64,000 nucleotides of DNA from Nonomuraea montanisoli (GTDB lineage: Bacteria; Actinomycetota; Actinomycetes; Streptosporangiales; Streptosporangiaceae). The DNA lies in the NCBI RefSeq assembly GCF_013363975.1, contig NZ_JABWGN010000002.1, positions 372,001 to 436,000 on the forward strand, read 5' to 3'. The notes under the pieces were generated by a model. That model ran no database searches, had not been told where the DNA came from, and saw only the letters and a list, made by a program, of their open reading frames with translations. The position numbers and the translations under genes were made by a program. Positions 21,944-46,650 of the stretch are shown here, one piece after another (position 1 is the stretch's first letter; each line of letters opens with the position of its first letter).

Positions 21944-22334
21944 CGAGCCGGCCGGGCGACCGCGTCGAGCCCCCTTCGCGGGGCTCGCCGAGGAAGGTCC
22001 GGGCTCCACAGGGCAGGGTGGTCGGTAACACCGACCCGGGGCGACCCGCGGGACAGTGCCACAGAGAGCAGACCGCCTCCCGTCCGCGGGAGGTAAGGGT
22101 GAAAGGGTGGTGTAAGAGACCACCAGCGCCCACGGTGACGTGGGCGGCTCGGTAAACCCCACCCGGAGCAAGGTCAAGAAGGGACGCTCTCCGGAGCGTC
22201 CCGCGCGCGACGTTCGAGGGCTGCCCGCCCGAGCCGCGCGGGTAGACCGCTTGAGGCCGCCGGCAACGGCGGCCCTAGATGGATGGTCGCCCCTTCGGCA
22301 ACGAAGGACAGAACCCGGCCTACAGGCCGGCTCG
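21944..22334 (+). ncRNA. rnpB: RNase P RNA (bacterial type A)
   Basis: Catalytic RNA of RNase P, which removes tRNA 5' leaders. The universally conserved core is visible: gaggaaggtccgggctccac with the following cagggtggtcgg (21989 onward), the acagtgccacagagagcaga region and ggtaagggtgaaagggtgg, and the 3' element ggacagaacccggcctacag. The 5' cgagccggc pairs with the 3' gccggctcg to form helix P1, which sets the ends at about 21944 and 22334, giving 391 nt, a normal actinobacterial size. Confidence 0.96.
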
Positions 22335-22440
22335 TCACTTCCACCCCTTCGACGGGTTGACGTTCGCCGCGATCAAGGTCGAGGCCTAGTAGTGGCGGAG
22401 GTCGTGGAAGCGCGTCCCCGACTCGTCCGTACACGCGAGG
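22335..22440 (-). pseudogene. tyrosine-integrase relic abutting rnpB
   Basis: Minus-strand reading gives GTRFHDLRHY, a stop (TAG), then in the same frame ASTLIAANVNPSKGWK and a stop. This is the catalytic His-x-x-Arg region of phage-type integrases (FHDLRHYYASTLIAAGV-like) with the second Tyr codon changed to TAG. The rest of the gene, including the catalytic Tyr, is gone. The fragment ends next to the last base of rnpB. Confidence 0.8.
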
Positions 22441-44500: not shown

Positions 44501-45144
44501 TCCGTGTACTGGTGGTCGATGACGAGGCGCTCGTCAGGTCCGGGTTGCGGATGATCCTGGAGGCCGCGGGCGACATGGTGGTCGTCGGTGAGGCTCGGGA
44601 CGGCGATGAGGCCGTGTCCGCAAACACCCGGCTCAGGCCCGACGTCGTGCTGATGGACGTCCGCATGCCGGGCACCGACGGCCTGACCGCCGGTGCGCGG
44701 CTGATGGCGGGGCCGCGAGCGCCGAAGCTCATCATGTTGACCACGTTCGACCTGGACGAGTACGTCCACGAGGCGCTGCGAGTGGGGGCCGTGGGGTTCC
44801 TGCTGAAGGACACGCCGCCGCGCGACCTGGCCGCCGCCGTGCGTACGGTGGCGGCCGGGCACGCCATGCTGTCGCCCACGGTCACCAAACGGGTGATCAG
44901 CTCGTTCGCCGACAGAACCCCTTCTCGGGCGGAGGCCGCGCGTGGCCGGCTCGCGACGCTGACGGCCCGCGAGGAAGACGTGATCAGGGCCGTTGCTCGT
45001 GGCCTGTCCAACGCCGAGATCGGCCGCGAGCTCAAGTTGACCGAGGCGACCGTGAAGGCTCATGTCAGCCGGGTGCTGGCCAAGCTGAACCTTGCCAACC
45101 GGGTCCAGGCAGCCATCCTGGTCCACGACGCCGACCTCGGCTGA
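44497..45144 (+). CDS. NarL/LuxR-type response regulator
   Basis: 215 residues. Receiver domain with acidic pocket LVVDDEALVRSGL, phosphorylated Asp in PDVVLMDVRMPGTDGL, Thr in MLTTFDLDEY and Lys in GFLLKDTPPRDLA; C-terminal LuxR HTH LTAREEDVIRAVARGLSNAE, IGRELKLTEATVKAHVSRVL. Partner of the kinase upstream (ATGA overlap). Target genes unknown; candidates are the divergent hydrolase and the pair itself. Confidence 0.95.
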   Translation: MIRVLVVDDEALVRSGLRMILEAAGDMVVVGEARDGDEAVSANTRLRPDVVLMDVRMPGTDGLTAGARLMAGPRAPKLIMLTTFDLDEYVHEALRVGAVGFLLKDTPPRDLAAAVRTVAAGHAMLSPTVTKRVISSFADRTPSRAEAARGRLATLTAREEDVIRAVARGLSNAEIGRELKLTEATVKAHVSRVLAKLNLANRVQAAILVHDADLG

Positions 45145-45146
45145 TC

Positions 45147-45391
45147 GGGTGCCGTCTTCTGGTTCATGCTGCTGTGGTGGGTTGGTGGGGCGTGGTCTTC
45201 TGGCCCCGATGCGGACTTGGGCTGGCCGGGTGCGGTTCTTTGGTTCACGATGCTGCGGGGGGCTGGCCGGGTGCGGTCTTCTGGTTCATGATGCTGCGGG
45301 GGCCGATCGGGTGCGGTCTTCTGGTTGATGGTGCTGTGGTGGGCTGGTCGGGTGCGGTCTTCTGGTTCATGGTGCCGTGGTGGGTTGGTCA
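45147..45391. repeat. six 40-41 bp tandem units after the response regulator
   Basis: Units start near 45147, 45188, 45228, 45269, 45309 and 45350, each beginning gggtgcggtcttctggttca or a variant. They directly follow the stop codon. No spacers separate them. Open frames across the array are repeat artefacts. Confidence 0.9.
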
Positions 45392-45603: not shown

Positions 45604-45630
45604 CGCACCGGTCAGCAACCGACCGGTGCG
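45604..45630. promoter_or_regulatory. 10-bp perfect hairpin upstream of the erm-type locus
   Basis: cgcaccggtc (45604-45613) pairs with gaccggtgcg (45621-45630), loop of seven. No T-run follows. It could end upstream transcription or serve as an operator; ggaacgttcc (45657-45666), another perfect palindrome, lies just beyond in the likely promoter. Confidence 0.6.
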
Positions 45631-45680
45631 TCGCGGAAAAGGCGTTGCGCCGGAACGGAACGTTCCCTAAGGTCTCGCGC

Positions 45681-45740
45681 ATGACAGGCTTCTGCATCTG
45701 CTTCATTCGCATCCGCTCCGGCCGGGCCCAGGCCCGCTAG
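45681..45740 (+). CDS. 19-residue leader peptide of the erm-type gene
   Basis: Short ORF ATG...TAG with AAGG eight bases upstream, encoding MTGFCICFIRIRSGRAQAR. The stop is 82 bp before the methyltransferase. Inducible erm genes carry such leaders, where drug-bound ribosomes stall; the RIR here matches the Arg/Lys-x-Arg/Lys arrest motif known from macrolide stalling peptides, and the hydrophobic stretch before it is also typical. Identification rests on position and motif, so it is a strong candidate rather than proven. Confidence 0.6.
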   Translation: MTGFCICFIRIRSGRAQAR

Positions 45741-45838
45741 GAGCGATTCTCCGCATCGCCTCCGGCGTGCCCGGGGCCCTTCGAGATCCCTTTTCTCTCG
45801 AAGACCCAGAAGGGCAACTGCTGTGGCGCAGTCTTTCG
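45741..45838 (+). promoter_or_regulatory. attenuator-like competing hairpins
   Basis: Hairpin A: cttcgaga (45779-45786) with tctcgaag (45796-45803). Hairpin B: cgaagac (45799-45805) with gtctttcg (45831-45838, one bulge), enclosing the agaaggg ribosome site and GTG start. A and B share the cgaag segment and cannot form together. A gggccc late in the leader ORF can also pair with gggccc at 45774-45779, linking leader translation to the fold. Confidence 0.55.
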
Positions 45839-46650
45839 CATTCGGCGACTTTTCCCACACCCAGAAGAAGACCGCCCAGAAGAAGGGCGGCGGTCGCACG
45901 CCCAGAGACCGGGCACGACGCGAGCTCTCCCAGAACTTCCTGGTCGATCGGCATGCCGTGGGCCAGATGGTCAAGGCGGCCGAACCCGCCGGGCTCATCC
46001 TGGAACCCGGCTCCGGCGAGGGCGTCCTGACCACGGCGCTGGCCGCGACCGGCGCCCACGTCATCGGCTACGAGCTCGATCCGCTGCTCGCGGCCAAGGT
46101 ACGGGCCAGGACCCGTGACAACGCGGGCATCGAGATCGTGAAGGGCGACTTCACCGCGGCCCGGCCGCCGGAGGAGCCGTTCGCGGTCGTCGGCAACATC
46201 CCGTACTCGATCACCTCGAAGATCGTGGACTGGTGCCTGACGGCCGAGCACCTCACCTCCGCGACCCTCCTCACCCAGCTCGAGTACGCGCGCAAGCGCT
46301 CGGGCGACTACGGCCGGTGGAGCCTGGTCACGGTGCTCAGCTGGCCGTGGTTCACCTGGGAGCTGCTCGGCCACGTCGACCGGACCAGCTTCCGCCCGGT
46401 GCCCTCGGTCGACTCGGCCATCCTGCGCATCGACCGGCGGCCGGACCCGCTGGTCGCGGACGAGCAGGCCTATCGAGAACTGGTGGAGCTCGGCTTCACC
46501 GGTGTCGGCGGCTCGTTGCACGCCTCGCTCGAGCCGCACTACCGACATCTCCCTCAGGCCTTCCGCGCCGCGGGCATCGCTCCCGACACGGTCGTCGCCT
46601 TCGTCCATCCGGATCAGTGGATCACGCTGTTCCGGGAGCTGCACCGCTGA
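45823..46650 (+). CDS. erm: Erm-type 23S rRNA (adenine-N6) dimethyltransferase
   Basis: 275 residues, KsgA/Erm superfamily. Motifs: RRELSQNFLVD (33-42), SAM motif I LILEPGSGEGVLTTAL (58-73), IGYELDP (81-87), EIVKGDFTAA, catalytic GNIPYSITSK (124-133), FRPVPSVDSAILRI (190-203), and the C-terminal FVHPDQWITLFRELH. SQNFL and the FVxPDQWxxLF ending are typical of actinobacterial Erm rather than KsgA. Erm dimethylates A2058 and gives macrolide-lincosamide-streptogramin B resistance. GTG 45823 with AAGGG upstream. A leader ORF and hairpins precede it. A Lys/Gln-rich N-terminal tail (13-25) is an addition. Confidence 0.85.
   Translation: MAQSFAFGDFSHTQKKTAQKKGGGRTPRDRARRELSQNFLVDRHAVGQMVKAAEPAGLILEPGSGEGVLTTALAATGAHVIGYELDPLLAAKVRARTRDNAGIEIVKGDFTAARPPEEPFAVVGNIPYSITSKIVDWCLTAEHLTSATLLTQLEYARKRSGDYGRWSLVTVLSWPWFTWELLGHVDRTSFRPVPSVDSAILRIDRRPDPLVADEQAYRELVELGFTGVGGSLHASLEPHYRHLPQAFRAAGIAPDTVVAFVHPDQWITLFRELHR

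What the first reader, a model, noticed from the sequence alone, without database searches (positions are those of the whole stretch)
45604..46650. Erm-type methyltransferase with a leader peptide and competing hairpins: candidate drug-inducible attenuator
Seen directly: a 19-codon ORF (45681-45740) containing RIR, an 8-bp hairpin (45779-45803), and an overlapping alternative hairpin (45799-45838) that hides the ribosome site and GTG of the methyltransferase. Known: inducible erm genes use macrolide stalling on leader peptides, and Arg/Lys-x-Arg/Lys is a stalling motif. Inferred: stalling at the RIR codons would shift the fold and expose the start. The peptide sequence does not match the leaders I know (ErmBL, ErmCL, ErmDL).
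Basis: partly seen in the sequence, partly recalled or inferred. Interest (0 to 1): 0.8.

Follow-up and report, generated by a model that had tools for sequence, protein, structure and literature searches.

The report
Leaderless drug-sensing switch before erm
A ribosome-protecting antibiotic-resistance gene (erm) in soil actinomycetes is preceded by a short peptide gene and an RNA fold that are both conserved in its relatives; together they are predicted to keep the resistance gene silent until a macrolide-type drug would stall the ribosome on the peptide's Arg-x-Arg codons, and the peptide's start codon likely is the first base of the messenger RNA.

Summary
The finding holds, with a different RNA switch. 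The gene is an Erm; the genome has a separate KsgA. All 54 genomes of its genus (Nonomuraea) that were searched carry this erm with an Arg-x-Arg leader, as do Acrocarpospora, Rhodococcus and Nocardia loci (60 of 60 primary upstreams). New: (1) the leader is probably leaderless: its ATG lies exactly 7 nt after a TAnnnT -10 box in 56 of 60, under a WhiB7/WblC-type promoter. (3) On average the erm start is cheapest to open with a ribosome at RxR, though not in every relative, and weakly in the window. (4) Of 96 further erm upstreams, 47 carry a short R/K-x-R/K ORF exactly 7 nt after a -10 box (0 in two controls), in several unrelated peptide groups. Transcript start, stalling and induction are untested. 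A new variant of the known erm attenuator.

The parts
45636..45641 (+). WhiB7/WblC-type box GAAAAG, 3 nt upstream of the -35
   Evidence: Fits the published WblC consensus GAAAWY-N3-TKGMNN-N16..19-TANNNT (PMC7157823, passages read) except the last base of the box; positions -44 to -42 are A/T in 60 of 60 upstreams.
45645..45650 (+). -35 TTGCGC
   Evidence: Spacer to -10 is 17 nt.
45668..45673 (+). -10 TAAGGT, 7 nt before the leader ATG
   Evidence: 56 of 60 upstreams exactly 7 nt, 59 of 60 6-8 nt; in the window 5 of 1202 ATGs (both strands) have this spacing and only this one has the full promoter.
45681..45740 (+). leader ORF MTGFCICFIRIRSGRAQAR, probably leaderless
   Evidence: Leader conserved in 60 of 60 primary upstreams.
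45708..45716 (+). RIR codons, predicted stall site (I codon 45711-45713 in the P site)
   Evidence: RxR in 60 of 60 (x = I 46, L 8, M 5, T 1); stall geometry by analogy to ErmDL (PMC8298421, passages).
45714..45722 (+). S0, codons R-S-G; can pair with the erm start region 45820-45828 (helix P0)
   Evidence: 94.7% of cells paired in 59 relatives, mostly purine swaps opposite U; in the window 8 of 9 pairs, and P0 is not predicted to form there.
45724..45732 (+). S1, codons R-A-Q-A; pairs with 45771-45779 (helix P1)
   Evidence: P1 with its extension 96.2% paired; two-sided change U-A to G-C in two relatives.
45740..45763 (+). H1 hairpin after the leader stop (45740-45747 with 45755-45763)
   Evidence: 6 of 8 pairs have two-sided changes among 59 relatives, 7 of 8 in the 31-row family-level set.
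45771..45779 (+). S2, partner of S1
45779..45803 (+).
   Evidence: 94.9% paired; U-A to C-G in 10 of 31 family-level rows.
45805..45814 (+). T hairpin CCC-AGAA-GGG that holds the ribosome-binding site
   Evidence: CCC and GGG invariant in 59 of 59, so no covariation test is possible.
45810..45814 (+). Shine-Dalgarno-like AAGGG of erm
   Evidence: Sequence; conserved position.
45823..46650 (+). erm, 23S rRNA (adenine 2058) methyltransferase
   Evidence: NCBIfam erm_SHROVE 331.9 bits (cut-off 320), Erm broad 244.4 (212), ksgA 136.9 (below 171).

Best explanation
This is an erm gene preceded by a conserved Arg-x-Arg leader ORF and a covarying RNA fold, which together likely work as a drug-inducible translational attenuator whose leader is predicted to be leaderless and to be transcribed from a WhiB7-type promoter. 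Shown by sequence and comparison: the Erm identity, the leader, the -10 box 7 nt before its ATG, the promoter motif, and covariation in helices P1, H1 and H2. Inferred: WhiB7 raises transcription when translation is inhibited; transcription starts at the leader ATG, so a ribosome loads without a Shine-Dalgarno. Without drug the ribosome finishes the leader and the erm ribosome site and GTG stay folded (P1 with T and, in most relatives, P0; or S2 paired to the ribosome site once S1 is covered). With a macrolide or ketolide in the tunnel the ribosome would stall with the x codon of RxR in the P site; it then covers S0 and the first bases of S1, P0 cannot form, P1 weakens, and S2 can pair with the CCC that otherwise holds the ribosome site, so the erm start opens. 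Erm would then methylate A2058.
For: Erm identity and a separate KsgA over its cut-off. Erm in 54 of 54 genomes of the genus, leader at the primary copy of all 54. ATG 7 nt after TAnnnT in 56 of 60, C at -1 in 60 of 60, A/T box; published WblC promoters have this layout with most starts 7 or 8 bp after the -10 (PMC7157823 passages); a WhiB-family protein ending in an AT-hook, KRPRGRPRKHP, in the same genome. Fold: 95.1% of cells paired (shuffles 93.4), 26 two-sided cells against 2.9, 0 of 500 shuffles reach it, slid registers 37-49% paired; on 31 family-level matches 90.5% paired, 59 two-sided cells against 18.6, 0 of 500 (one of the 31, L108, is identical to training row L036). Nucleotide constraint: Ala codon GCT in 49 of 55 leaders with Ala there, against 1.9% of Ala codons in 30 erm genes. 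Opening cost of the erm start: mean 15.9 kcal/mol full length, 12.1 with the first free base at 20 (stall on RxR), 14.6 past S1; position 18 is cheaper than full length in 52 of 59 and than position 39 in 47 of 59; dip of over 1 kcal on both sides at 20 in 41 of 59 real against 41 of 295 shuffled. Further erm upstreams: 47 of 96 have a short R/K-x-R/K ORF exactly 7 nt after TAnnnT, 39 with a WblC-type box; reversed 0, antisense 0, shuffles mean 0.26; all 39 boxed ORFs have RxR, residue shuffles mean 20, maximum 29 of 39. The +X+ motif with x in the P site is the stall site of ErmDL with telithromycin (PMC8298421 passages).
Against: No transcript start, induction, toeprint or drug test exists here. 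The 59 sequences are related, so shuffle counts are not probabilities; A3 is fitted to the model. P0 has no two-sided change in the 59 rows and one such pair (two cells) in the 31. In the window itself P0 is not predicted, P1 is 0.13 with the full leader (a local leader hairpin competes), the S2:CCC pairing stays at 0.23 or less, and the dip is small (10.7-12.3 to about 9.8-10.5 kcal). The cheapest position varies: in the fine scan 38 of 59 have it at 20-24 and 14 at 8-13; in the coarse scan, which ran further, 17 of 59 have it at 51-60, past the leader stop. Even in the 'open' state the predicted cost stays near 11-12 kcal, and the SD bases stay mostly paired at every position. T is invariant, and the S2:SD alternative shows no covariation above shuffles. 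With erythromycin, unlike telithromycin, ErmDL does not need its RLR to stall. 49 of 96 further upstreams fail the scan; in at least eight of these a leader-like ORF (L111, L112, L113, L127, L134, L135) or the fold (L128, L131) is there. Second erm copies in four genomes of the genus lack the leader.
Confidence: 0.73

Rival explanations
1. Erm is controlled only by the WhiB7-type promoter; the short leaderless ORF and the fold are by-products (for example for mRNA stability) and no ribosome stalling is involved.
For: The promoter motif is strong, a WhiB7-like protein is present, and erm(37) of M. tuberculosis is described as a whiB7-regulon exception to uORF control (PMC4128351 passages).
Against: RxR in 60 of 60 leaders and in 39 of 39 boxed distant leaders with otherwise unrelated peptides; covarying fold that includes leader codons; wobble bases fixed.
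Confidence: 0.13
2. Transcription attenuation: the leader fold acts as a terminator (intrinsic or Rho) and stalling lets RNA polymerase read into erm.
For: whiB7/wblC and ABC-F resistance leaders are described as transcription attenuators (PMC12421871 and PMC4128351 passages). Three of 59 rows (L006, L007, L036) have UUUU just after hairpin T.
Against: No run of five or more U lies between leader stop and GTG in any of 59 rows; 51 of 59 have no U right after T, which has only three pairs. The conserved hairpins hold the ribosome site. Rho was not tested.
Confidence: 0.1
3. The leader senses amino-acid supply (Arg or Cys) rather than the drug, like the leaderless poly-cysteine ORFs of mycobacteria.
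For: 57 of 60 leaders hold a Cys and 44 hold two or more; leaderless Cys-rich attenuators are known in mycobacteria (Canestrari 2020, seen only as cited in PMC9094748).
Against: Three of 60 leaders lack Cys, the number and place of Cys vary, while RxR never varies; the downstream gene is Erm.
Confidence: 0.05

Closest known systems
ermD / ErmDL (RLR or +X+ class of inducible erm leaders)
   Same: Short leader with Arg-x-Arg, erm downstream; the x codon in the P site is the stall position with telithromycin (PMC8298421, passages).
   Different: No peptide similarity seen outside RxR (ErmDL recalled); here the leader is probably leaderless under a WhiB7-type promoter, and the leader codons after RxR form the attenuator helix.
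ermSV (Erm(V)) of Streptomyces viridochromogenes, a translational attenuator (Kamimiya and Weisblum; recalled, not read)
   Same: Actinomycete erm with an R-x-R leader. Six erm loci of one unnamed genus, probably Streptomyces (L184, L185, L214-L217), carry leaders of the form ..RMRRGPGALTG.. or RKRRGPGALTG that resemble it from memory, also starting 7 nt after a -10 box; of the three proteins scanned, L185 passes the Erm(O) cut-off and L184 scores best with Erm(V), 469.3 against 500.
   Different: Different peptide and RNA: L184 and L185 gave no match to the model of the window's fold (L214-L217 not tried).
WblC/WhiB7 regulon erm genes (SCO6089 Erm(O)-type; erm(37))
   Same: erm under WblC/WhiB7 control (PMC7157823 and PMC4128351 passages).
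   Different: The passages that I saw do not describe an RxR leader ORF at the transcript start or an RNA switch there.
Leaderless cysteine-responsive attenuators of mycobacteria (Canestrari 2020, seen as cited)
   Same: A leaderless short ORF as cis regulator.
   Different: Sense cysteine, not a drug.
whiB7/wblC uORF attenuator
   Same: uORF-controlled antibiotic response in actinobacteria (PMC4128351 passages).
   Different: Described with a start about 350 nt upstream and a predicted intrinsic terminator; here probably no 5' UTR before the leader and no long U run.

Membership tests
Erm 23S rRNA A2058 methyltransferase | Scores above curated Erm cut-offs and below the KsgA cut-off | tested here: met
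   erm_SHROVE 331.9 against 320; Erm broad 244.4 against 212; ksgA 136.9 against 171; the genome's KsgA is another gene, 223.6 against 171.
Erm 23S rRNA A2058 methyltransferase | Methylates A2058 and gives MLS resistance | not testable with these tools
   Needs primer extension or MIC.
Inducible erm translational attenuator | Short leader ORF between promoter and erm, conserved | tested here: met
   60 of 60 primary upstreams.
Inducible erm translational attenuator | Known macrolide/ketolide stall motif in the leader | tested here: met
   RxR in 60 of 60.
Inducible erm translational attenuator | Alternative RNA folds that hide or open the erm ribosome site | tested here: inconclusive
   The hiding fold is conserved and covaries; the opening by a stalled ribosome is a folding prediction, clear on average and weak in the window.
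Inducible erm translational attenuator | Drug-dependent stalling and induction | not testable with these tools
   Needs toeprinting and a reporter.
WhiB7/WblC regulon promoter | GAAAWY-N3-TKGMNN-N16..19-TANNNT | tested here: met
   Window GAAAAG-N3-TTGCGC-N17-TAAGGT, one base of the box off; conserved layout in relatives.
WhiB7/WblC regulon promoter | WhiB7 encoded in the genome | tested here: met
   WhiB-family protein ending in AT-hook KRPRGRPRKHP at G000:C2:21337-21477; named WhiB7 by that motif, recalled.
Leaderless transcript | Transcription starts at the leader ATG | tested here: inconclusive
   -10 spacing fits, but no transcript data.
RNA family in Rfam 15 | Match above gathering score | tested here: not met
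   Only RNase P in the window.

The most novel reading that the evidence does not exclude
Actinobacterial erm genes share a two-lock control not yet described as a class: a WhiB7 promoter whose start point is the start codon of a leaderless Arg-x-Arg peptide, so 70S ribosomes load directly on the 5' end and sense the drug within the first 9 to about 25 codons. Several unrelated leader groups converged on the same RxR core. In the Nonomuraea/Rhodococcus group the stall codons and the codons after them are themselves the lid on the erm start site, so the stalled ribosome removes the lid by sitting on it.
Probability: 0.45. Interest if true: 0.8.

Novelty: new variant of a known kind. Interest (0 to 1): 0.63.

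Why it matters
Erm attenuators are textbook systems, best known from Firmicutes. If right, actinomycetes, the group that makes many of these drugs, use a leaderless version wired to WhiB7. That makes the question how leaderless ORFs respond to ribosome-bound drugs directly testable, and gives a set of natural RxR stall peptides for comparing macrolides and ketolides. The promoter-plus-ORF signature also lets leaders be found in actinobacterial genomes by sequence alone.

Tried and rejected
Rejected: KsgA identity. Rejected: my early reading that many Nonomuraea loci lack the leader; genome-search loci of '-' matches are not reoriented, and after reverse complementing them the leader was there. 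The strict regex found 55 of 69; of the 14 it missed, 8 are distant or second copies and 6 have variants such as RPLAR or GARAR, which includes. RNAalifold's own consensus prefers a fold in which S2 pairs the ribosome site and start; it is conserved (97.1%) but shows no covariation above shuffles, so I keep it as an alternative 'off' state. Probability-unpaired of the SD did not separate states; opening cost did. Taking the minimum over several ribosome positions (57 of 59) is biased, so I rely on single positions. The leader string also hit G250 in the phylum scan and G641 and G754 in the class scan; their flanks lack the attenuator. Literature: the phrase searches listed no paper whose title or opening abstract lines describe an RxR leaderless erm leader in actinomycetes; the library lacks most subscription papers, so this is weak. 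The main text of the erm leader survey PMC11264731 holds no 'Streptomyces', 'Nonomuraea' or 'Rhodococcus' and 'Actinomy' once, as an abbreviation.

Full report
What is there. The ORF 45823-46650 is an Erm: it passes the NCBIfam Erm cut-offs and fails KsgA's, its best solved relative by sequence is an rRNA adenine N-6-methyltransferase, 6nvm, and the genome holds a separate KsgA.

Conservation of the leader. All 54 genomes of the genus that were searched have this erm. After reverse complementing the loci on the minus strand, the primary erm copy of all 54 and the copies of one Acrocarpospora, four Rhodococcus and one Nocardia carry an Arg-x-Arg leader (60 of 60 rows). Nine rows of 69 were dropped beforehand: four second erm copies (L102-L105) and four distant erms (L043-L046), none of which shows such a leader by the scan, and L040, a duplicate of L026. 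In one genome (G032) leader and gene body lie on two contigs. The core is RxR (x = I 46, L 8, M 5, T 1), followed after two codons by R-A-L-A-R or a variant; x is codon 9 to 14. A 17-base string from the leader's end occurs exactly once in 37 of 54 genomes of the genus and in no second place. In 394 class genomes (one mismatch allowed) a 19-base version occurs in 8; I read the flanks of five, and two (L190, L191) lack the attenuator. In 396 phylum genomes the 17-base string occurs in 3, one of which (L049) lacks it.

Probably a leaderless leader. In 56 of 60 upstreams the ATG stands exactly 7 nt after TAnnnT, in 59 of 60 at 6-8 nt; the base before the ATG is C in 60 of 60; an A/T box lies upstream of the -35. 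The published WblC promoter is GAAAWY, 3 bp, TKGMNN, 16-19 bp, TANNNT, with most starts 7 or 8 bp after the -10 (PMC7157823, passages read). The window reads GAAAAG-N3-TTGCGC-N17-TAAGGT-N7-ATG. In the 64-kb window 5 of 1202 ATGs have a TAnnnT at that spacing and only the leader has the whole promoter. Of eight WhiB-family matches in the genome, one ends in an AT-hook, as WhiB7 does. A start at the ATG is thus predicted, not shown.

The RNA. An alignment of 59 upstreams from RxR into erm (A1; 59 of the 60, L100 left out) supports one fold: P0, leader codons R-x-G/S with the erm start GCUGUGGCG; P1, codons R-A-L-A with a strand before H2; H1, just after the leader stop; H2; and T, CCC-tetraloop-GGG on the ribosome site. 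95.1% of cells pair (shuffles 93.4%), 26 cells have two-sided changes (shuffles 2.9), no shuffle of 500 reaches the observed values, and slid registers pair 37-49%. H1 has two-sided changes in 6 of 8 pairs; P1 has one such pair, in two species in which the Leu codon became Arg and the partner base changed with it (L030, L095). P0 varies on one side only: the x and G/S codons swap CAC/CGC and AGC/GGC, purine swaps that keep a pair with the U bases of the start region. A covariance model from A1, run on 61 sources, finds 31 erm upstreams of the family and of one further genus at E up to 1.6e-7, and these pair 90.5% with 59 two-sided cells against 18.6. That alignment is fitted to the model, and one of the 31 is identical to a training row. 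Codon choice shows pressure on the RNA: the Ala codon GCT is used in 49 of 55 leaders that have Ala there, against 1.9% of Ala codons in 30 erm genes.

The switch. I removed the 5' part that a ribosome would cover and computed what it costs to open the ribosome site and GTG. Counting from the first base of the first Arg codon, the mean cost is 15.9 kcal/mol for the full leader, 12.1 with the first free base at 20, lowest (11.5) at 22-23, and 14.6 at 39. A ribosome with the x codon of RxR in the P site would leave about base 18-20 as the first free base (toeprint geometry, general knowledge), so the predicted 'on' range lies next to the expected stall. Position 18 is cheaper than full length in 52 of 59 and than position 39 in 47 of 59. 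A dip of more than 1 kcal against both neighbours occurs in 41 of 59 real and 41 of 295 shuffled sequences. Against this: the cheapest position is at 20-24 in 38 of 59 and at 8-13 in 14, and in the coarse scan it is at 51-60 in 17 of 59. Mean pair probabilities show the change: with the edge up to 17, P1 and T hold; from 22 on, S2 pairs with the CCC of T instead. In the window itself P1 and P0 carry mismatches, P1 is minor with the full leader, the S2:CCC pairing stays at 0.23 or less, and the dip is only 1-2.5 kcal.

Wider. Of 102 further erm hits from the family and class, 96 upstreams were scanned (94 new, two are duplicates of A1 rows). In 47 a short ORF with R/K-x-R/K starts exactly 7 nt after TAnnnT; 39 of these also have the WblC-type box; reversed and antisense controls give 0, shuffles 0.26 on average. 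All 39 boxed ORFs have RxR; residue shuffles give 20 on average and at most 29. The peptides fall into clearly different groups (..RALAR..PAPGR..RPRxTRALAR..ARLRSALPDR..HSVRMRRGPGALTG....FRLRTVARTLP....TRIRRS), so RxR and the leaderless start are what they share. The HSVRMRRG group (genus g3, probably Streptomyces; L185's protein passes the Erm(O) cut-off, L184's scores best with Erm(V)) resembles the known ErmSV leader (recalled). The FRLRT group comes from genus g5, probably Nocardia, since the other erm of G288 is identical to that of N. cyriacigeorgica (L041). 49 of the 96 do not pass the scan.

Placement. It works like an inducible erm attenuator of the RxR (ErmDL) class, in which the x codon sits in the P site at telithromycin-induced arrest (PMC8298421, passages). 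It differs in the predicted leaderless start, the WhiB7-type promoter, the peptide and the RNA. No Rfam family matches it at its gathering score. I call it a new variant of a known kind.

Noticed in passing
window 45139-45390: Array of about 6 copies of a 41-bp unit between the response-regulator gene and the erm promoter; function unknown.
   Followed up: no
window 45604-45630: Perfect 9-bp inverted repeat CGCACCGGT/ACCGGTGCG just upstream of the promoter; neither arm is present in loci L004 and L005 of the two closest relatives.
   Followed up: partly
L102, L103, L104, L105 (G045, G024, G008, G009): Four genomes of the genus have a second erm copy without the leader in the 400 bases upstream; perhaps controlled otherwise.
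   Followed up: partly
L222, L224, L226, L228: More distant erm genes (38-39% identity) have very short leaders that end in RIRRS (MLAFSCFMRIRRS, MLAFPCFVRIRRS, MCCFACFTRIRRS), also 7 nt after a -10 box.
   Followed up: partly
L209, L213, L221, L165, L169: A separate leader group ending in RxRSAxxDR or similar, 330-390 nt upstream of the erm match, with the WblC-type promoter.
   Followed up: no
alignment A1 columns 28-30 (Ala codon GCT right after the leader's third Arg): GCT gives a U.G pair in P1 where GCC would give C.G; the rare, weaker codon is kept in 49 of 55 leaders with Ala there; unexplained, perhaps P1 must not be too stable.
   Followed up: no
PLSDB record NZ_LT559118.1: Listed among plasmids for Nonomuraea gerenzanensis but 11.85 Mb long, so probably the chromosome.
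   Followed up: no
window 21944-22338: Bacterial RNase P RNA, class A.
   Followed up: no
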